IMG/VR virus record: IMGVR_UViG_3300012683_000011
Span: 1-52,267 of that record
Length of the DNA: 52,267 nucleotides
From: a virus
Strand: one strand, 5' to 3'
Shown here: positions 2,341 through 47,020 of the stretch, one piece after another
How the letters are laid out: every line of letters starts with the position of its first letter
How positions within the stretch are numbered: the first letter of the stretch is position 1
Position numbers and translations under genes: made by a program
The notes under the pieces: generated by a model
Told to the model about the DNA's origin: nothing
Database searches by the model: none
Seen by the model: the letters and a program-made list of their open reading frames with translations, nothing else

Positions 2341-2799
2341 TAGCCAATATGGCTTTTTCTGGCGACGGTAGTCCCCGGACCTAACTCGTGTACGCTTATA
2401 GAGTAATCTATAACTCTCGTACATATCTGAGCTTACACAGTCAGCCGGAAACGTAACTCTAGGTTCAATCCAACCGTTAGTTGGAAAAGCCTTAATGTAT
2501 TGCATTAAAATTGTATCAAATTTCCATGTACGCAACCCTCCATAATAAATATCATTGTAGCGGGAAATGACGTGTTGGTAGAAATTCTTAACCCAAAGTA
2601 CGTGATCTCGTGACAACGTGACCCACAATAAGTTTGGGTGATTTTGTAAATCTAATGCATAATGTGGTTCTAAGATCATGCAAAGTATTGCTGAAGAAAG
2701 TAACGGTTCAAGTTCCTTAGCATACTTTTGTATAGTTTTATCACTGAGCCACCAAGCGCATGTTTGTGGATCAGGATGTACGAAGTATATGGGTTCCAT
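2329..2799 (-). CDS. Phage protein of a common hypothetical family (HPxxxW motif)
   Basis: 156 residues. The order of motifs, an N-terminal VHPDPQTCAWWLSDK, a central NHPNLLWV followed by a Trp/Tyr-rich helix, and a C-terminal RRQKKPYWL, matches a widespread phage family of unknown function that usually begins DxDPxxAAxxxCDKH, contains HPSxxW and ends near a PxWL motif. The family match is from memory of the pattern. The start ATG has AAGG 7 bases upstream. The phased octamer GTGACAACGTGAC (2610-2622) lies inside the gene and encodes part of WVTLSRDHV. Confidence 0.75.
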   Translation of the reverse strand: MEPIYFVHPDPQTCAWWLSDKTIQKYAKELEPLLSSAILCMILEPHYALDLQNHPNLLWVTLSRDHVLWVKNFYQHVISRYNDIYYGGLRTWKFDTILMQYIKAFPTNGWIEPRVTFPADCVSSDMYESYRLLYKRTRVRSGDYRRQKKPYWLLTE

Positions 2800-2808
2800 G
2801 TGTCACCT

Positions 2809-3012
2809 TCATTTGAAGCGTAGTTCAAAGGTTTCTGATAAAATAAGTTTAGGAAAGCCTACATACTTACGGCCAATTGGCATCGTGACACCGTGATCTA
2901 TAAAATAACAACTTGGAACCCCATTCGGGTATGAAATAACTACATATAAAGTCGATAATGGTAAATTCAAGGCGAATTTTAGCATTTGTTCTGTATATTG
3001 TTGTTTTGTCAT
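2809..3012 (-). CDS. Uncharacterised 67-aa protein
   Basis: Unrecognised. It is a short protein with alternating beta-type segments (STLYVVISYPNG, SCYFIDHGVTMPIG) and no cysteine pair. It is the first gene leftward of the 376-bp non-coding segment at 3013-3388 and ends 10 bases before the next start. The SD is weak. The sequence for GVTMP overlaps the phased motif at 2885-2897. Confidence 0.65.
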   Translation of the reverse strand: MTKQQYTEQMLKFALNLPLSTLYVVISYPNGVPSCYFIDHGVTMPIGRKYVGFPKLILSETFELRFK

Positions 3013-3388
3013 ATTTATAGACCGGAAGTAAGCCCTAACTCTATAGGGTATTGGCGGTTATGGCGCGCAGTTAAACGTTTAACCCTCGGCATGGAGTAAA
3101 AATGCCAGTGCGATAGAATAACGTTTATTGAAAGTAGGTATGGTATGTAAAAAGTAAGTAGTAGTTATATAGGGGGTAGATATATGGGATTCCCCATTTT
3201 CCAATGCCTTACCCTTATTCTTAAAAACGTCATTCTATCGCATCGATCGGTGGCTAGGGGGTATTTAGTTAACAGGTGTTAACATTGGCCCATTGCAGCT
3301 TGCAGTGGCCCCAGGATCGACGCTAGGTGGCCTAGGCTGCCCCAGGCTCGACGATCTAGCTTAAAAGGTGGCAGAGTAGGGGGTGGCC
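3013..3388. other. Non-coding segment with long-range inverted repeat and GC-rich repeats
   Basis: No credible gene lies here. An imperfect inverted repeat (17 of 18 bases) joins 3109-3126 and 3225-3242 around about 98 nt; a small hairpin (GGCAT/ATGCC) lies at 3089-3105. The part at 3309-3359 is much GC-richer than its surroundings and holds a direct repeat of CCCCAGG-A/C-TCGACG (3309-3322 and 3340-3353) with CTAGGTGGCCTAG between. It probably acts as a control region or structured leader for the genes at 2329-3012, but I cannot identify a promoter. Confidence 0.6.
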
Positions 3389-3835
3389 CTACCCATGGTC
3401 AGATTGATGTGAAATGTACTGATTTTGAAGAGTTTTAAGTTCTTTTTCAAGAGCATTGACACGTTGTAACAGTGTTTCTTTGTCTTCAATAATCGCTCTA
3501 AAATTCATTAAAAGAACTTCTTTTAGACGAACTTTTAGACGAAAATGATTTCTAATTTCACTTTCACCAGTGAATTCACAAACACAATCTTCGTCTAAGA
3601 ATTGCTCTAATTGTTTTAGTGGTAATGTGACTTCGTGACAACGTGACGTTGTAATGTTTGGGCTAACGCTATCTAAAATATTAAAAGCATTACTTTCAGC
3701 TACAATGTCTACAACTTGATTACATTGATTTGCCATTTTAAAAGCTTCTTGTCGTAACGTATCTCTATATTCTTTTTGTTTTACTAAATCATTATTATAC
3801 CAAAAATAAGGTAACGCGGATATACAATGTCTCAC
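3389..3835 (-). CDS. Uncharacterised 148-aa protein with C-terminal coiled coil
   Basis: Unrecognised. I start it at GTG 3835, whose GTGA overlaps the stop of the upstream gene, rather than a TTG 42 bases further upstream. The C-terminal 45 residues have heptad spacing (LLQRVNALEKELKTLQ), indicating a coiled coil. The run of four phased octamers at 3627-3655 is translated here as ITTSRCHEVTL; this stretch probably represents repeat DNA accommodated in the reading frame. Confidence 0.65.
   Translation of the reverse strand: MRHCISALPYFWYNNDLVKQKEYRDTLRQEAFKMANQCNQVVDIVAESNAFNILDSVSPNITTSRCHEVTLPLKQLEQFLDEDCVCEFTGESEIRNHFRLKVRLKEVLLMNFRAIIEDKETLLQRVNALEKELKTLQNQYISHQSDHG
3627..3655. repeat. 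Phased GTNAC octamer run, four units, inside a gene
   Basis: GTGAC-TTC, GTGAC-AAC, GTGAC-GTT, GTAAT follow one another at exactly 8-bp steps. This is the clearest copy of the GTNACNNN family inside a coding region. Confidence 0.85.
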
Positions 3836-4089
3836 AATGTCACCAGACGCATAGCGATTGCTTCCCAACGGGGCCAATTTACGTACTTCTCAAAACCTTC
3901 GAGAAACTTGTGAAAGTCTCTCATAATCATGTCGTACATTTGCGTAAGAGAAACAATAAGCTTCTCTCGACACGTTGAACGAAGCTTCATATTGCTAACC
4001 GCATTAGCAATCTTCTTCGTGTACTCATCAATTGCTTGAGAATTGATGATTAGTGTGTCGTGTATAATAAACTTAGCCTGGAGAATCAT
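3832..4089 (-). CDS. Uncharacterised 85-aa helical protein
   Basis: Unrecognised, mostly helical with several Met and Arg. ATG 4089 has GAGG seven bases upstream. The start overlaps the end of 4073-4270 by 17 bases and its stop overlaps the GTG of 3389-3835 by 4 bases, so these genes are translationally coupled. No motif can be named. Confidence 0.7.
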   Translation of the reverse strand: MILQAKFIIHDTLIINSQAIDEYTKKIANAVSNMKLRSTCREKLIVSLTQMYDMIMRDFHKFLEGFEKYVNWPRWEAIAMRLVTL

Positions 4090-4270
4090 TTGTTACCTCG
4101 CCTTCACTTTTGTAGTAGTGGGTACGGATGAATAAATTTAACTTGTCGATAAGATTAAATAATTCAACTAAATTCTTTGCCTCAAATAAGTCTGTTGGCC
4201 TACTAATATTATCTATGTGAGCGCTCATAGCAGTAATTAACGTAGCAGCTTCGCCTTTACTCAGTTTCAT
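4073..4270 (-). CDS. Uncharacterised 65-aa protein
   Basis: The open frame extends further upstream, but ATG 4270 is preceded by a strong SD (GGAGG, 6 bases) and overlaps the upstream stop by only 14 bases, so I choose it. The product starts MKLSKGEAATLITAMSAH and is a short helical protein. Function unknown. Confidence 0.7.
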   Translation of the reverse strand: MKLSKGEAATLITAMSAHIDNISRPTDLFEAKNLVELFNLIDKLNLFIRTHYYKSEGEVTNDSPG

Positions 4271-4700
4271 TGGTAGCCTCCATTGGCTTGTCACAGACAA
4301 GTTTCTTTTTCGGGACCATTTCTTCTGTTTCAACCCACTTACAGGATTGACCACTAATATGAAGCTCAATCAAAATATTGTTATTGCGCCAATATTTACG
4401 TAAAGAGCGCTCAGGGTCATCTTTATTAGGCCAATCTTTTCTAGCCCCAAAGCCATTGAATGAAAGAGCCTTCAAATATGGTAAAATCTTTTGTGCATTA
4501 TCGAACCAAAGATCAACTTCTAATCCCTCGTCACCATATTGATAAAAATAAACGCAGTCAGTATCGTGGCCGTTTTCCTTAGCAACGTCGTAAACAATAC
4601 TGTAAAGTTTCTCGTATTTCTCTTTTACATTGTTACGTCGTTTCGCCGCTTCTTCCGCTTCTTTTGTTTGGTAAGCATTCCATGTTTCAAACGTTTGCAT
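4257..4700 (-). CDS. Uncharacterised 147-aa protein
   Basis: I start at ATG 4700 (AGGA, 6 bases upstream) rather than an in-frame ATG at 4736 that has no SD. The protein has a charged N-terminal helix (EAEEAAKRRNNVKEKYEKL), then a mixed region with several aromatic residues and a late KKK stretch. I do not recognise a family. Confidence 0.7.
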   Translation of the reverse strand: MQTFETWNAYQTKEAEEAAKRRNNVKEKYEKLYSIVYDVAKENGHDTDCVYFYQYGDEGLEVDLWFDNAQKILPYLKALSFNGFGARKDWPNKDDPERSLRKYWRNNNILIELHISGQSCKWVETEEMVPKKKLVCDKPMEATNETE

Positions 4701-4917
4701 AACTGTTCCTGTATACGAAGTGTGTTTGTGTTTCAAAGACTTGTCTTACAATTACTTCTTCTTGTAACAATTGATCTAAAGCTTGTATGAACACGTCGTA
4801 GCGGTATGTGTTCCAGGCGCCGACACCTAGTGACGCTTTTAGCTGTGAATAAGTTTTGTTATTCATCCGCAATTGAGCGACGATACTTTTCACCATGCTA
4901 GAAATGGGAATGAACAT
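4687..4917 (-). CDS. Possible winged-helix-like protein, 76 aa
   Basis: The segment KTYSQLKASLGVGAWNTYRY followed by DVFIQALDQLLQEEVIVRQV and a beta hairpin is reminiscent of a winged-helix layout, where a helix-turn-helix precedes a two-strand wing. This is a weak pattern-level suggestion. The start is either ATG 4917, inside the upstream gene, or ATG 4896 just past the upstream stop; neither has a strong SD. Confidence 0.6.
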   Translation of the reverse strand: MFIPISSMVKSIVAQLRMNNKTYSQLKASLGVGAWNTYRYDVFIQALDQLLQEEVIVRQVFETQTHFVYRNSYANV

Positions 4918-5236
4918 AATCCGCTATTTCTTTGAATGTTTTATTTTGCTCGTCGTTAAGAGTAACGATTCTATGAATTTCATCTAAAGTGATTTTAAAA
5001 TGCAGTTCTGGTAGTATGTAAGTGGCGTTTGGCCCTTCAAAATGTGCCCCTGTAATTACAGCGTAATCATTCTCATCATAGATGATGCGTTGTTTTAGAA
5101 CAGCGTGACGAAGAATCCCAAGTGCGCAGTAATGGCAATCTCCGTCAATGATCTTTACAAGATCAAGTGTACAGTGTTTATCTTCATCAGCATTATTTAA
5201 TGCTTCGACGAATTGTTCTTTTAAATGAGGGTCCAT
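4898..5236 (-). CDS. Phage protein of a common hypothetical family (YCALGILRHA)
   Basis: 112 residues. The pattern, a central HYCALGIL motif followed later by LPE, then LNDEQNKTFKEIADYV near the end, matches a widespread family of small phage proteins that usually show CCLGVL and LND--G-SF-EIA. The family has no known function. ATG 5236 has a good SD (AAGGA, 6 bases). Confidence 0.75.
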   Translation of the reverse strand: MDPHLKEQFVEALNNADEDKHCTLDLVKIIDGDCHYCALGILRHAVLKQRIIYDENDYAVITGAHFEGPNATYILPELHFKITLDEIHRIVTLNDEQNKTFKEIADYVHSHF

Positions 5237-5342
5237 GTTTAGTTCCTTTATACCCGTGGTCAGACTTGCACTGACAAGGCATCACTGCCGGCACTTTTTA
5301 AAAATGCTATGTTTGCTATTTCATCACACGGGCGAGTGAAAG

Positions 5343-5510
5343 TTACTTTTTAAGTATTTTGTCTGTGGTTGTACGAACTGAAAAGTATTCAACGATAAAT
5401 TGTTTTTCACCATGCAATAGAGTTTTACGCCACGTTACGCTAAACCCCATGCGTCTTAATTCATCGCGACGTTGTAACGCCGTGTCAATGTGGTTAAAAG
5501 TTTCGATCAT
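5343..5510 (-). CDS. Uncharacterised 55-aa protein
   Basis: A short gene, MIETFNHIDTALQRRDELRR at its start, with ATG 5510 overlapping the stop of 5507-5695 by four bases (ATGA). Its coding style matches the neighbours (helical N terminus, beta-type C terminus FIVEYFSVRTTT). A phased octamer run (5466-5486) lies inside it. The 106 bp downstream to 5237 are non-coding and contain a GTCAG/CTGAC hairpin. Function unknown. Confidence 0.7.
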   Translation of the reverse strand: MIETFNHIDTALQRRDELRRMGFSVTWRKTLLHGEKQFIVEYFSVRTTTDKILKK

Positions 5511-5695
5511 ACCATTTCTGCCTTACAGTTACAATAGTAAGGAAATTCCAGTACCCAAATGACTTCTTTAATTTTATACATTATATTTTTGTAGTAAATT
5601 AAATCGCCCCATGCAGGCGGGGAAGGTAATTCAAATAAGTCATCTTGGTGTTTAGTTTCATTTTTGAGTATTTTAAACTCGATATTAATTTTCAC
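5507..5695 (-). CDS. Uncharacterised 62-aa protein
   Basis: Starts at GTG 5695 with a near-perfect SD (GGAGGT, 5 bases), overlapping the stop of the upstream gene (GTGA). The protein has a Pro-rich turn (ELPSPPAWGDLIYY) and ends with a CNC motif. Small phage proteins with -PxxGD-IxY-xxxY-V- often adopt an SH3-like beta barrel; here that is only a guess. Confidence 0.65.
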   Translation of the reverse strand: MKINIEFKILKNETKHQDDLFELPSPPAWGDLIYYKNIMYKIKEVIWVLEFPYYCNCKAEMV

Positions 5696-5901
5696 AACTT
5701 ACCTCCGTAAAGATGGGCACGAATTCTTAGTGCTTCTTTAATAAGATGTTTGTATTGATCGGTTTTACCGTAATGCTTCTTAATCACTTTAGCGGAGTAA
5801 CGCAAACGTTTGATTTCGTTGTTGACTCGTTCACTAATAATTATAGTCTTATTAGAGTTAGTTTTGCGACAACGAATTATTCTGGTTATTTCAGTACGCA
5901 T
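5692..5901 (-). CDS. Small basic protein, 69 aa
   Basis: Strongly basic (many Arg and Lys throughout), helical, without cysteine pairs. It could bind nucleic acid (inference from charge). The start overlaps the end of 5891-6070 by 11 bases. Unrecognised. Confidence 0.65.
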   Translation of the reverse strand: MRTEITRIIRCRKTNSNKTIIISERVNNEIKRLRYSAKVIKKHYGKTDQYKHLIKEALRIRAHLYGGKL

Positions 5902-6070
5902 AAAGTTTTCGTCTTCGTAATTCAGTGATTATACTAAGATATTCTTCATTTTCATCAATCAATTGCTGCATAAGCAACTCCACAATAACTTCACGGAGTA
6001 TGTTTATATCTTCCGTATCTACTTTATTAAGTAGAGCAATGATTTTATCGCGGAATTGTTTGTGCGTCAT
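5891..6070 (-). CDS. Uncharacterised 59-aa helical protein
   Basis: ATG 6070 has GGAG 5-6 bases upstream and is preferred over an upstream in-frame ATG that lies inside 6081-6293. The product (MTHKQFRDKIIALLNKVDTE at its start) is helical and acidic in the middle, basic at the end. Unrecognised. Confidence 0.65.
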   Translation of the reverse strand: MTHKQFRDKIIALLNKVDTEDINILREVIVELLMQQLIDENEEYLSIITELRRRKLYAY

Positions 6071-6080
6071 TGTTACTCCG

Positions 6081-6293
6081 TTACTCCAATTCAAGAGTAA
6101 ATTTGTATGGCTTACCATTGGTGGATTGAATTTCAAAAGACTTAATCTTTCGATCCGTACCCAACTCTAAGTAAACACCATTATTTTCGTACAATACAAC
6201 CCGTTTAATCGCTGCTTGCGCAACTAATGCAGAAGCTAAACCGACTGCTATAGAGAATACTATTACTGTGAGCCAATAAAAAAGTTTATTCAT
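6081..6293 (-). CDS. Small exported or membrane-anchored protein, 70 aa
   Basis: Residues 4-27 form a hydrophobic segment (FYWLTVIVFSIAVGLASALV) followed by AQA, which looks like a signal peptide or N-terminal anchor. The remaining 42 residues are beta-rich and polar. Acting in the cell envelope is therefore likely; a superinfection-exclusion or lysis-accessory role is possible but unproven. It overlaps 6286-6651 by 8 bases. Confidence 0.7.
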   Translation of the reverse strand: MNKLFYWLTVIVFSIAVGLASALVAQAAIKRVVLYENNGVYLELGTDRKIKSFEIQSTNGKPYKFTLELE

Positions 6294-6651
6294 ATTTCTG
6301 CTTTATGAATGCGAGAATATTAGCGGCGACTTGTTCTTTGGTTGCTTCTTTACCAAGACTAATATTGTTATATCTGTGTCGATTTGGGGTACCTTCAAAA
6401 TCTGGCCAAAAGAGATTCATAAATTCATCCGTTTGTAAATCAAAGAATTCTCTTAGAACACAGAAGTCTGTTTTTCCTTTGAAGAAATTTGCCCACATAA
6501 ACCAAGCTTCACCCATTGCACAACCGCACGTTGGTGAACATGTCGTTGCACTAAAAGTATTAAAGTCAAACTTCTCGTGGTAGAGGTTACCGCGGATTAA
6601 ATGTTTGACTAATTTAAGCAAACGTTGTTTATGATGTAGTTTTGTAGTCAT
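6286..6651 (-). CDS. Phage hypothetical protein with CSPTCGCAMG motif
   Basis: 121 residues. The motif TTCSPTCGCAMGEAW, followed by EFFDLQTDEFMNLFWP and a C-terminal TKEQVAANILAFI helix, matches a common phage family in which a Cys-rich C-G-x-x-x-C-A-x-G loop precedes a FFGL/LF-P segment. The family is uncharacterised; the cysteines may bind metal. Its start is coupled to the previous gene by an ATGA overlap. Confidence 0.7.
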   Translation of the reverse strand: MTTKLHHKQRLLKLVKHLIRGNLYHEKFDFNTFSATTCSPTCGCAMGEAWFMWANFFKGKTDFCVLREFFDLQTDEFMNLFWPDFEGTPNRHRYNNISLGKEATKEQVAANILAFIKQKYE

Positions 6652-6830
6652 TGTTTCTTCTCGAAAAGTGGTTTACTAGGGCCTGGGCAAAACTCTGTTA
6701 ATGTTTTAGACCAAAGTGATAAACCAGCAAAATGTTGTTTTAGAACTTTGGGGTGAGCGCAGTAAACACCATCAGGATCAGCCCCAGCGTATTTACAATG
6801 TTCGCAACGTCTATTTTCCACAGGTTTCAT
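6648..6830 (-). CDS. Small zinc-ribbon-like protein, 60 aa
   Basis: The protein contains RRCEHCKYAG, then YCAHPKV and a final CPG, giving a C-x2-C, C-x-H, C arrangement that looks like a small metal-binding fold. I start at ATG 6830 (AGAGG just upstream, ATGA overlap with the upstream stop) rather than the in-frame ATG at 6854. Function unknown. Confidence 0.7.
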   Translation of the reverse strand: MKPVENRRCEHCKYAGADPDGVYCAHPKVLKQHFAGLSLWSKTLTEFCPGPSKPLFEKKQ

Positions 6831-7642: not shown

Positions 7643-7643
7643 T

Positions 7644-7934: not shown

Positions 7935-7935
7935 G

Positions 7936-8031
7936 TTACCACTCGTCGTAATGTGTAGGTTTGTTAGGTGGCTTTTTCTCTTTATAGAGAATTATAGACC
8001 CAATAAGCATGATGAAAATAAATGTTAGCAT
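7936..8031 (-). CDS. Single-span membrane micro-protein, 31 aa
   Basis: A 31-codon frame, MLTFIFIMLIGSIILYKEKK at its start, with one clear membrane helix followed by a basic and Pro-rich tail. Its stop is one base before the ATG of the next gene. The SD is weak, but the frame sits exactly in an otherwise empty gap and has typical micro-protein form. Confidence 0.6.
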   Translation of the reverse strand: MLTFIFIMLIGSIILYKEKKPPNKPTHYDEW

Positions 8032-8044
8032 AATTAATACCAAC

Positions 8045-8152
8045 GTAACGTTGTAACGATGGAACTTCTTAAAGCGCCACTTTGCTACTGGCCCGGGACT
8101 TCGCAACTGGTCTTTAATGGTTATTTCGTTTCAAACACCGTTACAACGTTAC
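8045..8152. repeat. Phased GTNAC runs in the gap before 8031
   Basis: GTAAC-GTT-GTAAC-GAT (8045-8060) and GTTAC-AAC-GTTAC (8140-8152) bracket about 80 bp of non-coding DNA, in inverted orientation to each other. The gap 8032-8159 contains no other feature that I can see. Confidence 0.7.
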
Positions 8153-8159
8153 ATTTGAA

Positions 8160-8387
8160 TTACTTAACTTGCAGCATAAGATCGAGAATTGCGATCATAG
8201 CGTTGGTGGAAACTTCCATGTCGCTTGAATGGCGAATGTTCCAGTGATGCTTGCGCAGTTTGTGCCGTTCGCGTTCAGTCTTGCAAGCCTTCATTGCTTT
8301 GTGAAAGGATTTGCCAATCTTTGAATTGGTGGGGATGTTAGCGCTTACAACGGTGTGAAGGTTGCGCGCGTCTTTGTTATTGCTCAT
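8160..8387 (-). CDS. Small basic protein, 75 aa
   Basis: Basic and His/Lys/Arg-rich in the middle (KACKTERERHKLRKHHWNIR), with an Ala/Ile/Leu-rich C-terminal helix. ATG 8387 has GGAG 5 bases upstream and overlaps the neighbouring stop (ATGA). Nucleic-acid binding is possible. Unrecognised. Confidence 0.65.
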   Translation of the reverse strand: MSNNKDARNLHTVVSANIPTNSKIGKSFHKAMKACKTERERHKLRKHHWNIRHSSDMEVSTNAMIAILDLMLQVK

Positions 8388-8605
8388 TTTAACTCCGTGA
8401 GGTTGTACTTTGTGATTTGTGGGAGGAATTCATTTTCGTTGTACTGAAAAGCCCATTTATGGCCATAAATACGAAACATATTGTCCCTAGCGAATTCAAA
8501 AGACATATTTTCAAACTTAACATACTTCTGTGCATACAAAGAATTAAGTCCGAATGTAAAGTACCAATTTCCATTAGTCCTTTCATCGTTACTTATTGCT
8601 TGCAT
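8384..8605 (-). CDS. Phage hypothetical protein with WYFTFG and WAFQY motifs
   Basis: 73 residues from ATG 8605 (GGAG, 6 bases). The order WYFTFG, KYVKF, then FARDNMFRIYGHKWAFQYNE matches a common small phage family (WYFTFG ... EAR--M---YG--W-FQY). The family is uncharacterised. Its widespread presence beside early genes suggests a conserved accessory role. Confidence 0.75.
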   Translation of the reverse strand: MQAISNDERTNGNWYFTFGLNSLYAQKYVKFENMSFEFARDNMFRIYGHKWAFQYNENEFLPQITKYNLTELK

Positions 8606-8620
8606 ATTTAGCTCCAGCAA

Positions 8621-8742
8621 TGTCACTGCTTATCAGCTTGCTAAAGGCTTTCTCGTTCCATAGTTAACGGATGTAGCTCGCTTGGTATGGAAGTACGTTG
8701 ACACTCTCGTCCGCAGAGACTAAACGTATTAAAGCAGTGACA
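8621..8742. repeat. Inverted repeat around a 100-nt island
   Basis: TGTCACTGCTT (8621-8631) is repeated inverted at 8732-8742 and enclosed DNA has no gene. The arms contain GTCAC/GTGAC and partly extend outward (CAATG...). This is a shorter member of the inverted-repeat islands seen at 8991-9180 and 9753-9932. Confidence 0.55.
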
Positions 8743-8751
8743 ATGTTGAAG

Positions 8752-8973
8752 TTAAGACTGAGTGATTTTCATTTGGTAGTAAACTTGAAATATTTTAATT
8801 ATTTCAACGTTAAATTGCGCAACCATCGTAGCTACAGTATTTTCTAAATCTTCGTTTACTTCGTTATTGTCTTCAAAATACTTTAGAAACTCTGGTTTAA
8901 TAGAGTTACGAATTGCGTCTGTTGTATTAATTGCAAACTTATCGATGTCGATACACAAGTCTTCGATTTTCAT
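8752..8973 (-). CDS. Uncharacterised acidic 73-aa protein
   Basis: Acidic and helical (MKIEDLCIDIDKFAINTTDA at the start, EDNNEVNEDLENTVATM in the middle). ATG 8973 has AAGG 7 bases upstream. It lies between two inverted-repeat islands. Unrecognised. Confidence 0.65.
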   Translation of the reverse strand: MKIEDLCIDIDKFAINTTDAIRNSIKPEFLKYFEDNNEVNEDLENTVATMVAQFNVEIIKIFQVYYQMKITQS

Positions 8974-8990
8974 ATAGTACCTTGTTTAAT

Positions 8991-9180
8991 GTTCACAATG
9001 TCACAGTGTAACGTATGCTCAGTTGATAAAACCTAGTATTAGTTACTTCCGCATCTTAATTAAGTTTACTGTGTCAAGGCTAACCACACAGTCATTACGA
9101 ATGATAATTAAGTTTATTAGCGGTCGCTTCGGAGGAACTTATCCATTATCGAAACTACGTTACGCTGTGACAATGTGAAA
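8991..9180. repeat. GTNAC-bearing inverted repeat island with inner hairpin
   Basis: A 25-base arm (8991-9015) pairs with 9156-9180 with 22 of 25 matches; both arms are phased GTNAC runs (GTCAC, GTAAC / GTTAC, GTGAC). The enclosed 140 nt contain a perfect 7-bp hairpin ACTGTGT/ACACAGT (9068-9092), the motif AACCACAC (9082-9089) and a direct repeat TAATTAAGTTTA on either side of that hairpin. There is no open frame of note. Confidence 0.75.
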
Positions 9181-9181
9181 A

Positions 9182-9280
9182 CTAAAAATTGTTATTTCGC
9201 GGAGCGGTGTACAATACTAAAGCTAACAAACCAAAGAATATTACAAAGTTTAGAATAGTTTGTAAAATAGCTATCAGCAT
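9182..9280 (-). CDS. Single-span membrane micro-protein downstream of the lysozyme
   Basis: A 32-codon frame whose ATG shares one base with the lysozyme stop (TAATG). Almost the whole protein is one membrane helix (ILQTILNFVIFFGLLALVLY) followed by a short polar tail. Its position directly after an endolysin suggests a small holin, pinholin or other lysis-accessory protein (inference from context and form). Confidence 0.65.
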   Translation of the reverse strand: MLIAILQTILNFVIFFGLLALVLYTAPRNNNF

Positions 9281-9738
9281 TATAACCTCGCGCAGATGTT
9301 TTTAACTCTGTTTGGACACTGAATGAACCAACGTGAATTAATTAGTTCACGTTTCATTTCGGGAATATCATTGGATAAAAGAGCGGATTTAAATCTTTTG
9401 AATGTGTGGACTTTGTTGCCAAGGACGAAACAGATTTCGACGACGCATTCTTTTTGATCTGGCGTGAGGCTTGAGTAGCCACGCAATCTATTAGCAATTG
9501 ATTCAGCACTGGAAATATCTTCACGAAAGATTTCATCTGCTTGGTATTTTTGCAAACCGCGCAATTGCAAATGCCTAGAAATATCTCTCGAACTCCACCT
9601 GTGACCATAGCCAATCGTATCGTAACCGAGGCTATCTTTGTAGATTTCGCTCCGAAACCCTTCATTTTCTTTAATGTGGTCATATTGTGCTCCTTGAATA
9701 CTGTTGATGTATGTTGCGAGTGTAAGAGCTAAAAGCAT
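9280..9738 (-). CDS. Endolysin, GH24 (T4-type) lysozyme with N-terminal export signal
   Basis: Cleaves the glycan strands of peptidoglycan. The block E26-G-F-R ... Y-K-D35 ... D-T41-I-G-Y-G-H has the exact Glu-8x-Asp-5x-Thr spacing of the T4 lysozyme catalytic triad (E11, D20, T26), and the C-terminal SRWFIQCPNRVKNICARL fits the end of the fold. At 152 residues it is close to the usual GH24 length. Residues 1-17 are hydrophobic and end in Gly-Ala, consistent with a signal peptide or signal-arrest-release anchor, which would let the enzyme reach the periplasm without a classical holin. The SD is excellent (AAGGAG, 6 bases). It is located in the leftward unit, far from the tail genes. Confidence 0.93.
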   Translation of the reverse strand: MLLALTLATYINSIQGAQYDHIKENEGFRSEIYKDSLGYDTIGYGHRWSSRDISRHLQLRGLQKYQADEIFREDISSAESIANRLRGYSSLTPDQKECVVEICFVLGNKVHTFKRFKSALLSNDIPEMKRELINSRWFIQCPNRVKNICARL

Positions 9739-9752
9739 AATTAACTCCTTAA

Positions 9753-9932
9753 CGTTGTAACAATGTCACAATAACTTGGTGTTTGAATCGTTCGTAGAGT
9801 TATGCTTACGATTACCCGTATTAAAGTAACCCAGGGCATTTCTATTTACTGTTCAATCCTTGAATACGTAGCAACCTTATATGAGGGCCGAATTTGTGTG
9901 CTACGAATTGTTATTGTAACAATGTTACGACG
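9753..9932. repeat. GTNAC-bearing inverted repeat island
   Basis: Arms 9753-9775 and 9910-9932 are complementary at 20 of 23 bases and consist of phased octamers (GTAAC-AAT-GTCAC-AAT / GTAAC-AAT-GTTAC). The enclosed 134 nt have no gene and include a CGTAGCA/TGCTACG stem near the right arm. The left arm lies just upstream of the lysozyme SD and the right arm overlaps the 3' end of 9925-10143 by 8 bases. Confidence 0.75.
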
Positions 9933-10143
9933 CAAAATCACTATAGGTTTGTTCATCAAGAATTTTGAAATGGCGGCGAATGAAACGGTGAGAGCGTTGC
10001 TTAAAACCAGAAATCGGAATATTCCAGCAGCAAGGACAGAATTTACCGTGGCGAACCGTCGCAGCAGGAATTCCGTTAATTGCATAGAACTTTGAAGGTT
10101 TGTGTTTCTTGTATTTGCCGCGAGTGCGAGGGGAACGTGACAT
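9925..10143 (-). CDS. Small basic Cys/His protein, 72 aa
   Basis: Very basic N terminus (MSRSPRTRGKYKKHKPSK), then KFCPCCWNIP (Cys 36, 38, 39) and later HRFIRRH, so a metal-binding, nucleic-acid-binding mini-domain is plausible. ATG 10143 has GGAG 5 bases upstream and lies two bases past the stop of 10146-10373. Unrecognised. Confidence 0.65.
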   Translation of the reverse strand: MSRSPRTRGKYKKHKPSKFYAINGIPAATVRHGKFCPCCWNIPISGFKQRSHRFIRRHFKILDEQTYSDFAS

Positions 10144-10145
10144 CG

Positions 10146-10373
10146 TTACTCCGTTGGGTAAAAATGTTTCACTATTTGTTCTAAATTATCAATTAGAAAT
10201 TCAGAACCAAATGTTGCCATTGGGTTGATTTCTAATTGCGCTTTCACAAAACGATCAAAATCTTGTTGTGAAAGCGTAACTGGAAAACTGAGTTTCATAT
10301 CTGTAGTCTTACGTAGATAGAGTTCGCAAGCGCGACGACGTGAAATTGTGTGAATTGTTCGGTATTTTAGCAT
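10146..10373 (-). CDS. Uncharacterised 75-aa protein
   Basis: A basic N-terminal half (SRRRACELYLRK) and a C-terminal half with KLSFPVTLSQQDFDRFVKAQ. ATG 10373 follows AGG at 6 bases. It is the last gene before a 580-bp stretch that holds only repeats and hairpins. Function unknown. Confidence 0.65.
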   Translation of the reverse strand: MLKYRTIHTISRRRACELYLRKTTDMKLSFPVTLSQQDFDRFVKAQLEINPMATFGSEFLIDNLEQIVKHFYPTE

Positions 10374-10390
10374 ATTGAGCCTGTAATGTT

Positions 10391-10554
10391 ACGACGTTAA
10401 AGAGTCTCAGAATTTCGCTGACTAGTGCTATCCATAACATCATGTTTAGGCAGTCACCCTAACTTAGATTTATGAATTGTACCCATAAAAGGTGATAACA
10501 CCAATGAGTGGAATACTCGCAGTATAATTGCGTTCTGAGACTCTTTAACATCGT
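10391..10554. repeat. 22-bp inverted repeat around a 120-nt island
   Basis: ACGACGTTAAAGAGTCTCAG plus AA (10391-10412) is repeated inverted at 10533-10554 with one mismatch. Phased GTNAC units abut the outer ends (GTTAC at 10389, GTCAC at 10562-10566). The enclosed sequence has no convincing gene and looks like a structured, possibly transcribed element. Between it and the next island (10567-10716) I see nothing but a frame without a start codon. Confidence 0.75.
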
Positions 10555-10716
10555 TCGCAATGTCACGGCGTTCTGTTAGTGGAGTCAAGCACTGTGAAAT
10601 TTCGACGGTGTACCGTGTACCACAAAAGAATTTAAAGCTCTAAATGCAGCTTTAGTAACGTAATTCAGTGTGGAATTGTAACCTTGAAATTTGTTTGTAG
10701 AGTGTGACTAGACTTA

Positions 10717-10913
10717 GTGACGACGTGACAATGTGAACGATGTTGCAATGTCTCTAATTCTGGTAAACTACGCCTTAATCATACTAATCCAACAGAGAGT
10801 TTAGCGTCTGCCAGAATTTAGATATGAAACCCTTGAAATCATTACGTAAAGTTAATACGGATTAATTTCTACAGGTATGAATTAGAGACAATGTAACATC
10901 GTAACATCGTGTC
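10717..10913. repeat. Phased GTNAC runs around nested hairpins
   Basis: On the left GTGAC-GAC-GTGAC-AAT-GTGAA (from 10717) runs into an arm at 10742-10760 that pairs with 10879-10897 (17 of 19). On the right the series GAGAC, GTAAC, GTAAC, GTGTC starts at 10885 with exact 8-bp steps. Inside, AATTCTGG (10756-10763) can instead pair with CCAGAATT, and TAAAC with GTTTA, so two mutually exclusive folds exist. No gene is present. Confidence 0.75.
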
Positions 10914-10954
10914 GCCATTGTATGGAAATATTCTTTGAATGCAACGAATTTCTA

Positions 10955-11062
10955 CTACGAATTGTAGTAGTTGAAGAGAATCCGCATTTCCACGATGAGC
11001 GAAATTATCGCTTTGTTGCGGATGATGGAAGTGGCCAGTTCGTATTCACGGAAATAACTCAT
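10955..11062 (-). CDS. Micro-protein, 35 aa
   Basis: A 35-codon frame with a strong SD (AAGGAG, 6 bases from ATG 11062). It starts MSYFREYELATSIIRNKAII and is a single amphipathic helix, with alternating hydrophobic and charged residues. The strong SD and the clean gap around it argue that it is made. Function unknown. Confidence 0.6.
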   Translation of the reverse strand: MSYFREYELATSIIRNKAIISLIVEMRILFNYYNS

Positions 11063-11143
11063 GGGTTGCTCCTTATTGATGTGGCGATGTAACTAAGTAA
11101 CTATTTATAGCTACAAATTTTGAGGCTATAACTTAATTACGAA

Positions 11144-11159
11144 GTGACATCGTTACGTC
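11144..11159. repeat. Phased GTNAC pair
   Basis: GTGAC-ATC-GTTAC-GTC, two units at 8-bp spacing, between two micro-protein genes. Confidence 0.65.
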
Positions 11160-11165
11160 AAGAAG

Positions 11166-11312
11166 TTAGAAATAGATTGAGAGGGAATTTTCATGTTCCA
11201 TCGAATTGAGCAAGCATGCGAAAGCTTGCAGGCTTTTTCTATCGATGAAAATTAGGCGTTGTTTACGCAGTGACGTTGTGAATTCTGAATCGGTGGATGG
11301 TGTATGTGTCAT
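11166..11312 (-). CDS. Micro-protein, 48 aa
   Basis: A 48-codon frame from ATG 11312 with a strong SD (AAGGAG, 6 bases). It begins MTHTPSTDSEFTTSLRKQRL and is polar with a central hydrophobic patch (SLQAFACLLNSM). The sequence upstream of the SD is an unusual hairpin leader (11331-11401), so translation may be controlled. Unrecognised. Confidence 0.6.
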   Translation of the reverse strand: MTHTPSTDSEFTTSLRKQRLIFIDRKSLQAFACLLNSMEHENSLSIYF

Positions 11313-11330
11313 AGAATGCTCCTTTGTAAT

Positions 11331-11401
11331 TGTGTGGTTGTTTATTAATTAGTTTTTAGTTAATAAACAACCACACAGCAGAGTTAACTTACTGTGTGGT
11401 T
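11331..11401 (-). promoter_or_regulatory. Competing hairpins in the leader of 11166-11312
   Basis: A perfect 18-bp stem (11331-11348 with 11360-11377, 11-nt loop) lies directly upstream of the SD. Its inner arm AACCACACAG (11369-11378) can also pair with CTGTGTGGTT (11392-11401), forming a 10-bp alternative stem. Only one of the two can form at a time. No T run follows on either strand, so this looks like a switchable leader or an operator, not a simple terminator. The motif AACCACAC recurs at 9082, 11481 and 12570. Confidence 0.7.
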
Positions 11402-11505
11402 TATGTTTTCGTTCTATGGCGAAATAGAGTTACATTTCTATTCCGCTTCTCAACTTGAGCTAACAATGGCTCAGAGTTGCAACCACACTTTGTAGAGTGT
11501 GATTC

Positions 11506-11628
11506 CTAGGGTTCCAGAGTCCGACAATGGTGTCTCTGTGTACTAGGTTCTTTGGTCGCATTTGTTAAGCACTGTTGTTTCAGCGGCCGGTCTAATTCGT
11601 TAGAATTAGATTTAGCATACATATACAT
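11506..11628 (-). CDS. Possible micro-protein, 40 aa
   Basis: A 40-codon frame, MYMYAKSNSNELDRPLKQQC at the start, from ATG 11628 with GGGAG 8 bases upstream. Its start region lies in the left copy of the 30-bp inverted repeat (11617-11646). Composition is polar without clear secondary structure, so I am unsure it is a real protein. Confidence 0.4.
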   Translation of the reverse strand: MYMYAKSNSNELDRPLKQQCLTNATKEPSTQRHHCRTLEP

Positions 11629-11672
11629 AACAAATTCTCCCAGGGTTGGAAACTGGAAACTGTAACTTTAAG

Positions 11673-12125
11673 TTACGCAGCCTTGGCAACGGTGGCGCCA
11701 GCGTCACTCAAGGTGACACCAGCGTCCGAAGCACTCTTGATCGCACCGGCAAGATTTGCAGCGGTGGACAACATGACATCGTAACGACGGAAGTTTTCCG
11801 CCTCCTGCCGCGCGCCGTGGAAGTCGCCCTTGCGCTTGCAGTCTTCCACAAGCGACTTGTGCGAGTCGCGCCGCGCCTTGCACTGTTCACGGATGCTGTC
11901 GAGCATCGCGCGAGTGTGCTGGAACGGAACGCCCGACTTGGCAACTTCATGGCGGAAACTGTTCGCAAGGCTCATGATATTCTTATTCTGGTCCGACTCG
12001 TCCAGCTTGCTCCAATCGCTGAGGAAAGAGTTGATCGCCTTGGCGTGAGTACGCAGTGCGCTGGTCAACTTGGACACTTCCTTGGCGCTGGTATCGTTGG
12101 ACAGAAACTTGGAGATGATATTCAT
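11673..12125 (-). CDS. GC-rich helical protein of unknown function, 150 aa
   Basis: A wholly helical, highly charged protein (MNIISKFLSNDTSAKEVSKL at the start, an Ala-rich C terminus ending GATVAKAA). Codon use is GC-rich from ATG 12125 onward and AT-rich before it, so I place the start there although the frame is open to 12185. It is much GC-richer than nearby genes, as are the Ala/Pro-rich gene at 1622-2215 and the gene at 47021-47851, which suggests strong expression or separate origin. The leader carries two operator-like dyads. No family recognised. Confidence 0.75.
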   Translation of the reverse strand: MNIISKFLSNDTSAKEVSKLTSALRTHAKAINSFLSDWSKLDESDQNKNIMSLANSFRHEVAKSGVPFQHTRAMLDSIREQCKARRDSHKSLVEDCKRKGDFHGARQEAENFRRYDVMLSTAANLAGAIKSASDAGVTLSDAGATVAKAA

Positions 12126-12143
12126 GTGTATACGTGTACTTTC

Positions 12144-12229
12144 TTGCAACATTTGTTGCAAAGGATAGAAACTTACAATTTGCATACCATGCTACAAACT
12201 ATTGTTTGTATAACTTAGTATGTACAAAC
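12144..12229 (-). promoter_or_regulatory. Operator-like dyads upstream of 11673-12125
   Basis: TTGCAACA-TT-TGTTGCAA (12144-12161) is a perfect 8-bp dyad. GTTTGTA (12204-12210) and TACAAAC (12223-12229) form a second one, with another CTACAAAC at 12191-12198. They lie within 110 bp upstream of the start of the GC-rich gene and could bind a regulator. I see no clear promoter. Confidence 0.5.
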
Positions 12230-12264
12230 GGTAAGGTTTTACCCTGGGAGAGTTTGTTACGTAT

Positions 12265-12510
12265 ATGTATTTTCAAGGCTGCAACTTTCTCCCAACCGTC
12301 ATTGCTGGCGGATGCCTGGCGCTTTTACAGAGTCTTTATTTCGGATGGTATTCAAACCCCATACTTTGCGTTAGGGCGATTCCTAGCCATCTTACTGCTG
12401 GTGTTACTCGTAGCTACGACCTTTGGACTCGCGTGACTCTGAGAGTCTTGGAGCGTCCCTATCCTCCGTTTCCGGAGGCTGGCCGTTTCGTCTGTACTGC
12501 AAACTGTTAG
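12265..12510 (+). CDS. Doubtful rightward frame, 81 aa
   Basis: An 81-codon frame starting MYFQGCNFLPTVIAGGCLAL, with GGGAG about 16 bases upstream and its ATG inside the right 30-bp inverted repeat. It would be the only rightward gene in this arm. The DNA is hairpin-rich (12435-12652), and a second rightward frame (12134-12436) overlaps it, so the region may instead be structural RNA or control DNA. I give it low confidence. Confidence 0.25.
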   Translation: MYFQGCNFLPTVIAGGCLALLQSLYFGWYSNPILCVRAIPSHLTAGVTRSYDLWTRVTLRVLERPYPPFPEAGRFVCTANC

Positions 12511-12652
12511 TTTTGCAGTGCGCTTTGCGTCTGAGAGAATCTTTGCAGGTATGTAGATTTCAGAGAGCCAACCACACTTTTTCAGTGGTATAGCCCTATT
12601 CTAAGGACCACGGATGATACTCTAGTTAGATGAACCTAACACAGACTAGAGT
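12435..12652. other. Cluster of perfect hairpins
   Basis: In 218 bp there are at least four perfect dyads: GACTC-TGA-GAGTC (12435-12447), CCTCCG-TTTC-CGGAGG (12463-12478), CTGCAAA/TTTGCAG (12497-12518) and ACTCTAGT/ACTAGAGT (12619-12652), the last with an inner GTTAG/CTAAC stem. The density suggests a structured RNA or a protein-binding region. It is followed directly by the octamer arrays. Confidence 0.6.
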
Positions 12653-12665
12653 GTGTGATACTGCT

Positions 12666-12869
12666 GTAATGTGACGTTGTGACAATGTTTAGGCGCAAAC
12701 TAAGGATTGTGCATAAACGTATGTGTCATTGTGACATGGTACGTTGCAATATGCAATGGAGTGTGTCGTTTTGACAATTAGTAGTTTTTAGTGCTGTGTT
12801 TATTGATAAAAAGTGAGGGTTGTTACAACGTGACGTTGTTTTTGTAGTCACAATGTCACGTTGTAACAA
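12666..12869. repeat. GTNAC octamer array with long hairpin
   Basis: GTAAT, GTGAC, GTGAC lie at 8-9 bp steps from 12666. Further on a strong extended hairpin forms between 12809-12834 and 12855-12878, with a perfect 15-bp core TTGTTACAACGTGAC (12820-12834) paired with 12855-12869. Both arms and the loop contain phased GTNAC units. No gene is present. Confidence 0.8.
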
Positions 12870-12930
12870 TCACACTTTCCAACGTTGCATTTACTATTCA
12901 CATAGTAACAGCCTGTGAGTAAGTCACACA

Positions 12931-13148
12931 CTCACGATGTAACGTTGTCACTTTCACAAACTTTGGCACAGTTACGTCGTGACACTGTGACGATGTCACG
13001 TTGGTACTGTGTACTGGATCAAGAAGTATTTGAGACAGGCACAACGTGAGTTTGTACTTGATTGTGTAGTTGAGACGCTGTGACGTTGTCACGGTGTAGA
13101 GTTGTTAGTGTGCCAAAGTGTGACGCTGTGACATCGTGACATTGTTAA
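12931..13148. repeat. Largest GTNAC octamer arrays, in inverted arrangement
   Basis: Units start at 12939 and 12947; at 12971, 12979, 12987 and 12995; at 13072, 13080 and 13088; and at 13120, 13128, 13136 and 13144. Spacing is exactly 8 bp within each series. ACTTTGGCACA (12960-12970) is repeated inverted at 13109-13119, and the flanking arrays also mirror each other except for an 8-nt insertion (one unit) on the left. This looks like an iteron-type region. The 76 bp to the next gene (13149-13224) show a G-rich stretch only. Confidence 0.85.
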
Positions 13149-13224
13149 GTGTGTCACACAAGAGAGTGAGGGGGCGGGGAGGGTTTAGCGGTTGCATTGT
13201 TACATCGTGGGCTGGGGTAAGGGC

Positions 13225-13431
13225 TTAAATAAACTTTTTAATAAATTTTTCATAAAGAAGTTGTTTTCCACCATACCAACAATAAAGTCTCCCATAAGTA
13301 CAATGCCAAGTGTACTTTTTCATTTCTTGAACTAATTTTGTTTCGACTTTAAAAGAAGTAGGAACCCCTTTACCCATCCAACGAATAACTAATTCTGTAA
13401 CTGCATCATCAATTTTAATATATTCATTCAT
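13225..13431 (-). CDS. Truncated paralogue of the HNH/AP2-like protein, 68 aa
   Basis: The start MNEYIKIDDAVTELVIRW and the block VETKLVQEMKKYTWHCTYGRLYCWY align with the N-terminal half of the neighbour 13428-13739 (KWIKIDDENTHLEI, VDTKLVPFLEEIKWYWNKVLHKAYC). Such a layout is typical of the N-terminal part of phage HNH endonucleases. The nuclease half is missing, so it probably has no catalytic activity. It overlaps the neighbour by 4 bases (ATGA). Confidence 0.65.
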   Translation of the reverse strand: MNEYIKIDDAVTELVIRWMGKGVPTSFKVETKLVQEMKKYTWHCTYGRLYCWYGGKQLLYEKFIKKFI

Positions 13432-13739
13432 TTTCTTACTACCATATTTTTAAAGCGGTAATCATGAAAGTTGCCCATCAGTACATTATTGAAGTTAGAA
13501 GTTTTTAAATAAAATTCTACAATAGTTCTTGATAACATAATATTTCTTGGATTAGGGTCAAAAACTTTACAATAAGCTTTATGAAGAACTTTATTCCAGT
13601 ACCATTTAATTTCTTCTAAGAAAGGGACTAACTTAGTATCTACAAGCAAAACTTCAATATCACCATCTGTGAAGTGTATTTCCAAATGTGTGTTTTCATC
13701 ATCAATCTTAATCCATTTATTTAAACTCTTCGCTGGCAT
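13428..13739 (-). CDS. Degenerate HNH-endonuclease-like protein, 103 aa
   Basis: Residues 10-60 match the beta-rich N terminus of phage HNH/AP2-type endonucleases (IKIDDENTHLEIHF ... VDTKLVPFLEEIKWYW ... AYCKVF). The following LSRTIVEFY and NVLMGNFHDYRFKNMVVR correspond to the HR-x-I and VDHxNGNxxDNRxxNLR segments, but the catalytic His residues are replaced. It therefore looks like an inactive relative that may keep DNA binding. It is the first leftward gene, with a strong SD (AGGAG, 7 bases) and a promoter at 13758-13785, so it could be an early regulator. Confidence 0.6.
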   Translation of the reverse strand: MPAKSLNKWIKIDDENTHLEIHFTDGDIEVLLVDTKLVPFLEEIKWYWNKVLHKAYCKVFDPNPRNIMLSRTIVEFYLKTSNFNNVLMGNFHDYRFKNMVVRK

Positions 13740-13757
13740 AGCAATATCTCCTAAACT

Positions 13758-13785
13758 AATATAAGCCTATTTTAACCAAAGTCAA
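13758..13785 (-). promoter_or_regulatory. Leftward sigma-70-type promoter
   Basis: The minus strand shows TTGACT (13780-13785) and TATATT (13758-13763) separated by 16 bp, directly upstream of the SD of 13428-13739. This is the most likely start of the leftward early transcript. Confidence 0.7.
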
Positions 13786-13800
13786 GTAGTTTTATTCACT

Positions 13801-13940
13801 GATAATATGGCGTAATCACGCCTGGGGGTATACCATTTTGAGAATGGATATACTATATAGAATAATATCCTAATATAATATAGTGATGATGTAGTAGTAA
13901 TATTCTCTTATACACCCGGGCCAAGTTACGCCATATTATC
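13801..13940. other. Nested long dyad between the divergent operons
   Basis: GATAATATGGCGTAA (13801-13815) pairs perfectly with 13926-13940. An inner arm (13819-13832) pairs with 13909-13922 at 11 of 14 bases. The enclosed 76 nt are almost pure A/T with many TAATAT words and possible rightward -10 elements. It lies immediately before the packaging genes, so it may be a packaging site, an origin or the divergent promoter. The rest of the gap (13941-14049) contains only the repeat at 14004-14024. Confidence 0.7.
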
Positions 13941-14003
13941 CGGGAATATAACTACTCCACACCACCACTAATAACCTTGATTTTTATGCATTGCATTTAC
14001 CCG

Positions 14004-14024
14004 CTCACGACGTAACGTTGTCAC
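14004..14024. repeat. Phased GTNAC run upstream of 14050
   Basis: CTCAC-GAC-GTAAC-GTT-GTCAC, three units at 8-bp spacing, ending 25 bp before the first rightward gene. Confidence 0.75.
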
Positions 14025-14049
14025 AAGCTCCCAAGTACAAAACCAAAAC

Positions 14050-15261
14050 ATGCACACAACCACATTAAAAGGGCTCCTAGATGGTATAACCTCAAAAGAC
14101 GAGCTATACCATGTACTTCGTAACCATAAACATTCCATACGTCGCTTAGTAAATCAATCAACTGGCAAACCTTTCATCGTCCCGCATCACCTACTTTGTT
14201 CAACAAAGAAAGAGTTCTTTTTATCATTACTATATAATACCGGCGTAACGTCGTCACTTTGTGACGCTGCTTCCGATGTAACTTCTCACTCTGGTATAAA
14301 ACAATCGCCAATACCACTCATTTTCCCACGTTGCCGTCCGCACGAAGAAAAATTTCGACGCCAGTTTAAACTCGCAACTTGGTTAGACGTTCCATGCGGT
14401 TCAATTTTTACTTATGAACTCTCGCGCCGCAACACTTGGCGCTGTCGTTTTGTTGGTTCAGATGGCTTTCGTTGTCGAGAATACTCAAAAAATAACACTT
14501 GCTTCTTTTGTTGGCATCACTATGCTCTGGCAGCAAAACTAATTCAAAATATGTCATCAGAAGAGCAAAACTTACTTGGCGCTTCAATAAAGTCACAGTC
14601 AATCCGTGAACTCTATGAAAAGCATTTAAATGATCCAAACAGGAAAAATATTGAATCTGAGCTAGCTTTAATGCGGACGCTATTAACTGCTGTTGTTTCT
14701 AACATTCAATCCAAATCACTAGCGGATATACCGCTTGATGCGATCGCAACGGTGGTGACACTTTGTGAAAAGGTATCTTCGGCTGTTCTGACTATGACTA
14801 ATATTGAGACTAAGCTTGGGGATAGATTTAGTATCGAGCAAGTTAATGTTATTACGCTGCGACTGCTTGAAAGTTTTGTTAAGATAACTCAGCCTAATGA
14901 AGAACAGTGTCTCCAGCTTGCGGCTGTCTTTGAGAATTTGTCAATTAATAAAACTTTGCCTGTTATTACTTTACACGGTTCTACTTCCGATACAACTAAG
15001 CAAGCGACTCAAAGTTCAAAAGCTACGTTATCACCAGAAGCTACAGATATAGTCGCGTTGACATATTATGATAAAGTTACGCCATCACATATTATTCCAA
15101 AGCATTTTACAGCAAATGACATTGCTGTTCGGGTAGACCCGAATGTTTACTCTGATAGATTTACTCGCCAACAAGACGCAGCTAATTTTAAAACTAAACT
15201 TGAGAACCTCAAGCGCGCCGATCCTGACGTAACGTTGCAACTAGCCAGAATGGGATTATGA
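14050..15261 (+). CDS. First gene of the packaging operon; Cys/His protein, possible terminase small subunit role
   Basis: 403 residues. The centre holds a metal-site-like block (WRCRFVGSDGFRCREYSKNN followed by CFFCWHH), then a helical region typical of small-terminase or packaging adaptors (ESELALMRTLLTAVV, VVTLCEKVSSAVLTMTNIET). Its place two to six genes ahead of the large terminase supports a DNA-recognition role in packaging, but I cannot show homology. A run of three phased octamers (14245-14265) lies in frame and encodes GVTSSLCDA; a fourth unit (14278) encodes DVTS. The SD is poor. Confidence 0.7.
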   Translation: MHTTTLKGLLDGITSKDELYHVLRNHKHSIRRLVNQSTGKPFIVPHHLLCSTKKEFFLSLLYNTGVTSSLCDAASDVTSHSGIKQSPIPLIFPRCRPHEEKFRRQFKLATWLDVPCGSIFTYELSRRNTWRCRFVGSDGFRCREYSKNNTCFFCWHHYALAAKLIQNMSSEEQNLLGASIKSQSIRELYEKHLNDPNRKNIESELALMRTLLTAVVSNIQSKSLADIPLDAIATVVTLCEKVSSAVLTMTNIETKLGDRFSIEQVNVITLRLLESFVKITQPNEEQCLQLAAVFENLSINKTLPVITLHGSTSDTTKQATQSSKATLSPEATDIVALTYYDKVTPSHIIPKHFTANDIAVRVDPNVYSDRFTRQQDAANFKTKLENLKRADPDVTLQLARMGL

Positions 15262-46899: not shown

Positions 46900-47010
46900 G
46901 TAACGATGTCACGTTGAACCCCGTATTGACTCTACGGTGTCGCAAGCCGTAGATTTTAATCACCCAATATCTCAGGGATTTTTACTGCCCAAACAACGTG
47001 ACATCGTTAC
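46900..47010. repeat. Perfect 17-bp GTNAC inverted repeat around a hairpin island
   Basis: GTAACGATGTCACGTTG (46900-46916) and its exact inverse (46994-47010) each hold two phased GTNAC units; a third unit (GTTAC, 47014) continues the 8-bp phase. The enclosed 77 nt contain the hairpin TCTACGG/CCGTAGA. The element fills the 145-bp gap between 47021-47851 and 46450-46863 and is the only clear member of this family outside the 2.6-15 kb region that forms a full island. Confidence 0.85.
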
Positions 47011-47020
47011 AAAGTTACTG

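What the first reader, a model, noticed from the sequence alone, without database searches (positions are those of the whole stretch)
2610..15233. Dispersed GTNAC octamer family: a 5-bp palindrome repeated every 8 bp
The motif GTNACNNN recurs in runs with exact 8-bp phase. Clear runs are at 2610-2622, 3627-3655, 8045-8060, 8140-8152, 10717-10737, 10885-10913, 11144-11159, 12671-12683, 12939-12951, 12971-12999, 13072-13092, 13120-13148, 14004-14024 and 14245-14265, with further runs at 46900-47018 and 51741-51761. N in the palindrome is free, and the spacer is most often GTT, AAC, ATC, GAT, GAC, GTC or AAT. I noticed no phased runs across the structural genes at 16-40 kb. An 8-bp step does not fit the 10.5-bp DNA helix, so side-by-side binding of a classical dimeric regulator is unlikely. 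An octamer-stepping protein, a replication or partition array, a modification target, or expansion of a selfish element are possible.
Basis: seen in the sequence. Interest (0 to 1): 0.92.

Follow-up and report, generated by a model that had tools for sequence, protein, structure and literature searches.

The report
Tandem matS-like octamer arrays in phage
This phage genome carries about 30 short runs of an 8-base DNA word, GTNACRNY, repeated in exact register and matching the bases read by the E. coli chromosome-organising protein MatP; similar runs occur in unrelated bacteria and phages without a recognisable MatP, so they look like binding arrays for a protein not yet identified.

Summary
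GTNAC pairs 8 bp apart number 35 against 0.67 in shuffles, and a phased model finds 30 arrays against about 0.7 by chance. The full unit is GTNACRNY, with dyads at both N positions. Most arrays lie in noncoding DNA at 8-14 kb, often in the arms of inverted repeats. Three sister phages essentially lack them. The same arrays occur in other phages and several bacterial lineages. Between two related array-rich bacteria, GTAC positions differ at 1/184 sites and the free N positions at 18/81 (partly biased by how sites were found). This points to sequence-specific recognition of double-stranded DNA. The unit contains the MatP site matS (GTGACRNYGTCAC); another MatP reads GTTACNNNGTAAC. Best reading: tandem matS-like boxes for an RHH or MatP-like protein. 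No MatP or recognisable RHH gene was found in the phage, so the binder and the biological role remain inferred.

The parts
3627..3658 (.). octamer array, three exact units plus one degenerate, inside ORF 3389-3877(-)
8031..8166 (.). inverted-repeat element; arms 8031-8061 and 8136-8166 each carry an octamer array
   Evidence: arms 31 nt, 84% complementary; score 18.5 inverted against 7 direct
8985..9186 (.). inverted-repeat element; arms 8985-9015 and 9156-9186 with arrays at 9000 and 9159
   Evidence: 27 of 31 arm positions pair
9753..9932 (.). inverted-repeat element; arrays at 9757 and 9916
10386..10916 (.). chain of three overlapping inverted repeats with octamers at the junctions (arrays at 10717 and 10885-10916)
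   Evidence: arms 10391/10533, 10547/10720, 10737/10879
11076..11161 (.). pair of two-unit arrays (11089, 11144) in a weaker inverted repeat
12671..12686 (.). two-unit array
12810..12878 (.). inverted repeat of two arrays (12822-12837, 12847-12870)
   Evidence: 20-nt arms, 95% complementary
12923..13010 (.). two arrays; 12971-13010 holds four exact units, including the exact matS match GTGACGATGTCAC at 12987
13072..13151 (.). longest register, ten octamers in one 8-bp phase, including the exact matS match GTGACGTTGTCAC at 13080
14004..14027 (.). array in the gap between divergent gene blocks
14237..14268 (.). array inside the start of ORF 14050-15261(+)
46900..47021 (.). inverted-repeat element between two minus-strand genes; arrays at 46900 and 46998
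   Evidence: 17 of 17 nt arms pair
51741..51764 (.). three-unit array inside overlapping minus-strand ORFs
52198..52213 (.). two-unit array inside ORF 51958-52221(-)

Best explanation
The octamers are tandem DNA-recognition boxes for a protein that reads double-stranded DNA in 8-bp steps, most likely a ribbon-helix-helix dimer with MatP-like specificity. Each box would be ACRNYGT (dyad on the middle N of the spacer), separated from the next by one free base, the N of GTNAC. Dimers would bind side by side, as MetJ does on met boxes. Arrays paired roughly 80-300 bp apart could let bound protein bridge or loop the DNA between them. SHOWN: the phase, the RNY rule, both dyads, frequent pairing in inverted repeats, recurrence in unrelated genomes, and constraint with free N positions in one bacterial clade. 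INFERRED: that the binder is an RHH or MatP-like protein, that it acts on the phage, that it comes from the host or from an unrecognised phage gene, and the looping or organising role.
For: Sharp 8-bp phase; RNY spacer in 29 of 35 and periodic signal one unit beyond each pair. The unit GTNACRNYGTNAC contains matS GTGACRNYGTCAC (PMC6907758), and P. thracensis MatP has GTTACNNNGTAAC as a cognate site (PMC8669397), so the MatP family accepts different bases at N. MetJ dimers bind adjacent 8-bp boxes (PMC3228920). In G015 against G031: GTAC 1/184, R/Y 2/70, free 18/81, flank 297/2807 changed. Array-rich genomes have 14-90 three-unit sites and 0 reversed-control sites. An 88-aa RHH-like protein is in 11 of 11 array-bearing and 5 of 14 array-free genomes of one order.
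Against: No MatP or RHH_1 in the phage or in most array-rich genomes; two candidate phage ORFs failed. The N bases of neighbouring units are not palindromic as in matS (4 of 35). The spacers show some strand bias (AAT 9, ATT 1), not expected for a symmetric site. The inverted-repeat setting is not explained by binding alone. The 88-aa RHH profile is confounded with clade. The ortholog test is partly biased because both members were mostly found by the pattern.
Confidence: 0.45

Rival explanations
1. The arrays are parts of dispersed foldback (MITE-like) elements: the octamers are transposase or recombinase binding repeats in inverted arms, and the phage holds a collection of such elements in its variable region.
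For: 11 of 15 strong inverted repeats in the window carry octamers. In Acidobacteriota G022 the arrays sit in a dispersed element of about 260 bp with matching inverted ends, CAGAGCCGTTCGG...CCGAACGGCTCTG. Inverted arrays also flank AT-rich palindromes in Bacteroidales.
Against: The phage elements share nothing but the octamers. No transposase was recognised in the window by the family searches made. UBP6 arrays are mostly single or direct and keep their place between species while only the free bases change.
Confidence: 0.2
2. The arms act as nucleic-acid stem-loops (RNA processing, termination, or recombination cassettes between small accessory genes, like the stem-loop cassettes described for T4-type phages), and the octamer is a by-product of or an addition to the stem.
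For: Strong stems of 17-31 bp in both strands; position in the lineage-specific gene region; some strand bias in spacers.
Against: Many arrays are not in stems, here and in UBP6. Stems do not explain an 8-bp phase. Wobble pairs are not clearly biased to one strand (23 against 13). Terminator and promoter counts are at chance; no Rfam match.
Confidence: 0.13
3. The arrays are iterons of a replication, partition or packaging site bound by a phage initiator or centromere protein.
For: Dense arrays at 12.6-13.2 kb in noncoding DNA; sister phage G035 has other tandem repeats in its own noncoding region.
Against: Arrays are scattered over at least 15 places, some inside genes and far from the dense block; no initiator or partition gene was recognised beside them; three sister phages with the same replication genes lack them.
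Confidence: 0.12
4. Chance or microsatellite slippage of an 8-bp unit.
For: Adjacent units share the base at N in 16 of 35 pairs (9.4 expected, p 0.011), so some duplication of units happens. Some database hits are perfect satellites.
Against: 35 against 0.67 pairs; heterogeneous units; the RNY rule; changes restricted to free positions in bacteria.
Confidence: 0.01

Closest known systems
MatP/matS (E. coli Ter macrodomain; P. thracensis matS2)
   Same: Same specified bases: matS GTGACRNYGTCAC is a two-unit case of GTNACRNYGTNAC, and matS2 GTTACNNNGTAAC shows that N may vary between species. Sites are dispersed.
   Different: matS is a single 13-bp site, 23 copies confined to Ter; here sites are tandem arrays, N is not symmetric, and no MatP gene is found. 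MatP is reported only from enteric bacteria (PMC7188993).
MetJ/met box (RHH repressor)
   Same: 8-bp boxes side by side, one dimer per box, two or more needed.
   Different: Box sequence AGACGTCT (from general knowledge) differs; met boxes are promoter operators of methionine genes.
Foldback MITE / REP-like elements
   Same: Inverted arms and dispersed intergenic copies.
   Different: Phage copies share only the octamers; no common element sequence was found.
GlnR and MtrA sites (GTNAC half-sites in actinomycetes)
   Same: GTNAC half-sites in direct repeats.
   Different: From general knowledge these repeat at about 11 bp; here 8 bp is sharp and 11 bp gives no pairs.

Membership tests
MatP/matS | Exact 13-bp site GTGACRNYGTCAC | tested here: met
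   Two exact sites, 12987 and 13080; most other octamer pairs fit only with N free.
MatP/matS | matP gene (PF06303) present | tested here: not met
   None in the window; none over the cut-off in 16 records searched.
MatP/matS | Single sites confined to one chromosomal domain | tested here: not met
   Tandem arrays in the window; in G031 arrays are spread over many contigs.
RHH operator of the MetJ type | Adjacent symmetric 8-bp boxes | tested here: met
RHH operator of the MetJ type | RHH protein encoded by the same genome | tested here: inconclusive
   No RHH_1 in the window, no RHH family among the best Pfam matches of its small proteins; divergent RHH proteins or a host protein are not excluded.
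Foldback MITE | Copies share a common element sequence | tested here: not met
   Phage inverted repeats differ apart from the octamers; met in Acidobacteriota G022.
Foldback MITE | Target-site duplication and empty sites | not tested
   No close strain of the phage is held.
Iteron origin | Initiator binds repeats next to a melting region | not testable with these tools
   Needs replication mapping or binding assays.

The most novel reading that the evidence does not exclude
A MatP-independent, widely spread DNA-binding system reads tandem matS-like octamers in unrelated bacterial lineages and in phages, and uses paired arrays to bridge or organise DNA; phages gain the arrays to use or decoy the host protein.
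Probability: 0.25. Interest if true: 0.82.

Novelty: new variant of a known kind. Interest (0 to 1): 0.62.

Why it matters
matS sites are known as single 13-bp marks read by MatP in enteric bacteria. Finding the same recognition bases as tandem arrays in phages and in bacteria with no recognisable MatP suggests that this DNA code is more widely used than thought, and gives a precise bait to fish out the protein. The free-position pattern makes the sites testable at single-base level.

Tried and rejected
MatP and RHH_1 searches of the phage: none. ORF 11673-12185 as binder: all-helical low-confidence model without a strand, no relatives. ORF 42506-42688 as RHH, picked by eye: no Pfam, PDB-sequence or fold support. 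Protein shared by phages L012/L018/L029/L030 near their arrays: no Pfam family and no BLAST relative in the window. Rfam: none. DNA similar to 12655-13160 in phage and plasmid records: none. Promoters and terminators: at chance. Wobble bias in stems: not clear. Confinement of arrays to one domain in G031: not seen. Papers on tandem matS or GTNAC octamers in phages: none found in the library. The host could not be identified.

Full report
OBSERVATION. The window is one whole IMG/VR virus record of 52,267 bp. GTNAC pairs show one sharp peak at 8 bp, 35 against 0.67 in shuffles, with 1 pair each at 7 and 9 bp. A soft phased model finds 30 arrays against 0-2 in shuffles, the longest being ten octamers at 13072-13151. 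The spacer is RNY in 29 of 35 pairs, and the symmetrised logo shows weaker periodic signal one unit beyond each pair. The unit is GTNACRNY with two dyads 4 bp apart, on the N of GTNAC and on the N of RNY.

WHERE THEY LIE. 23 of 35 pairs are in about 5.2 kb of noncoding DNA and 10 are inside ORFs, where synonymous-codon shuffles give 2.0 (the gene calls are my own choice of ORFs). The richest part, 2.8-13.7 kb, shares almost no genes with three sister phages (G035, G053, G054) that share terminase, portal, primase and polymerase at about 34-47% identity. Those phages have zero or one GTNACRNYGTNAC. The arrays are therefore lineage-specific.

INVERTED REPEATS. The window has 15 strong inverted repeats within 300 bp, against 0.5 in local shuffles; 11 carry octamers in their arms. 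The clearest are 8031-8166, 8985-9186, 9753-9932, 10386-10916 (a chain of three) and 46900-47010 (17 of 17 nt). For well-separated array pairs inverted similarity exceeds direct similarity by a wide margin, while in the dense 12.7-13.2 kb block both occur. Inverted paired arrays also occur in other phages (L018, L020, L029/L030) and in Bacteroidales loci (L125, L130, L131, L140); UBP6 arrays are mostly single or direct.

SPREAD. Many are perfect satellites, but a distinct set is heterogeneous. Whole-genome counts of the three-unit pattern reach 48 (UBP6, G015), 90 (Saprospiraceae, G021), 47 (Acidobacteriota, G022) and 46 (G031), with zero for the reversed control. One Omnitrophota genome (G027) has 40 in both pattern and control and is set aside. 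In the order of G015, 11 of 25 genomes have arrays.

CONSTRAINT. Ten orthologous array regions of G015 and G031 differ at 1 of 184 GTAC positions, 2 of 70 R/Y positions, 18 of 81 free positions and 297 of 2,807 flanking positions. Most loci were chosen because both genomes match the pattern, which lowers the first two numbers; still, 13 of 20 fetched G015 array regions share homologous DNA with a fetched G031 array region. Free positions change while the box stays, as expected for a site read by a protein on double-stranded DNA.

WHAT READS IT. The unit contains matS, GTGACRNYGTCAC (PMC6907758), and P. thracensis MatP has GTTACNNNGTAAC as a cognate site (PMC8669397). An 8-bp step is no obstacle to side-by-side dimers: MetJ does this (PMC3228920). 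I therefore favour an RHH or MatP-like dimer per ACRNYGT box. This is inference. No MatP or RHH_1 was detected in the phage, two candidate ORFs failed, and the host is unknown. In the UBP6 order an 88-aa RHH-like protein tracks the arrays, 11 of 11 against 5 of 14, but both follow the clade.

ROLE. In G015, arrays lie in convergent, tandem and divergent gaps 6, 9 and 3 times, against 5, 12 and 9 for other gaps in the same stretches; this small sample argues weakly against ordinary promoter operators in that bacterium. Paired arrays would suit bridging or looping; [quoted passage not shown] For the phage, use or decoy of a host protein, regulation of the accessory genes, and carriage of foldback elements all remain open.

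VERDICT. A real, non-random, cross-lineage DNA motif, very close to matS in bases and to met boxes in geometry, a member of neither by the tests made, with the binder unidentified.

Noticed in passing
window 7936-14300: Spacers are strand-biased: AAT 9 against ATT 1, GTT 11 against AAC 6, ATC 9 against GAT 4. A symmetric double-stranded site would not need this.
   Followed up: partly
window 11617-12270: A 30-bp inverted repeat (93%) flanks the all-helical ORF 11673-12185(-) inside the noncoding region; possibly an inserted cassette.
   Followed up: partly
window 3109-3242 and 13785-13956: Two strong inverted repeats of similar size without phased octamers.
   Followed up: no
L198:10528-10607 and L198:11519-12013: Sister phage G035 has other tandem repeats in its noncoding region: a 16-bp CCCACTGTGTCACACA repeat and an 18-bp GC-rich array.
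   Followed up: no
L161-L180 (genome G022): A dispersed, roughly 260-bp foldback element family in an Acidobacteriota genome with octamer arrays in both arms.
   Followed up: partly
L125, L130, L131, L140: Bacteroidales elements in which inverted octamer arrays flank AT-rich palindromes.
   Followed up: partly
L012:154-909(-), L018:10828-11619(+), L029:2915-3523(+), L030:5275-5883(+): A protein family without Pfam match lies next to octamer arrays in two phage groups.
   Followed up: partly
window 47021-49178: Three neighbouring genes match cyanophage Pam3 gp34, gp33 and gp32 families.
   Followed up: no
window 13225-13739: Two adjacent small minus-strand ORFs look like diverged paralogues, with an NEYIKIDD/NKWIKIDD start.
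   Followed up: no
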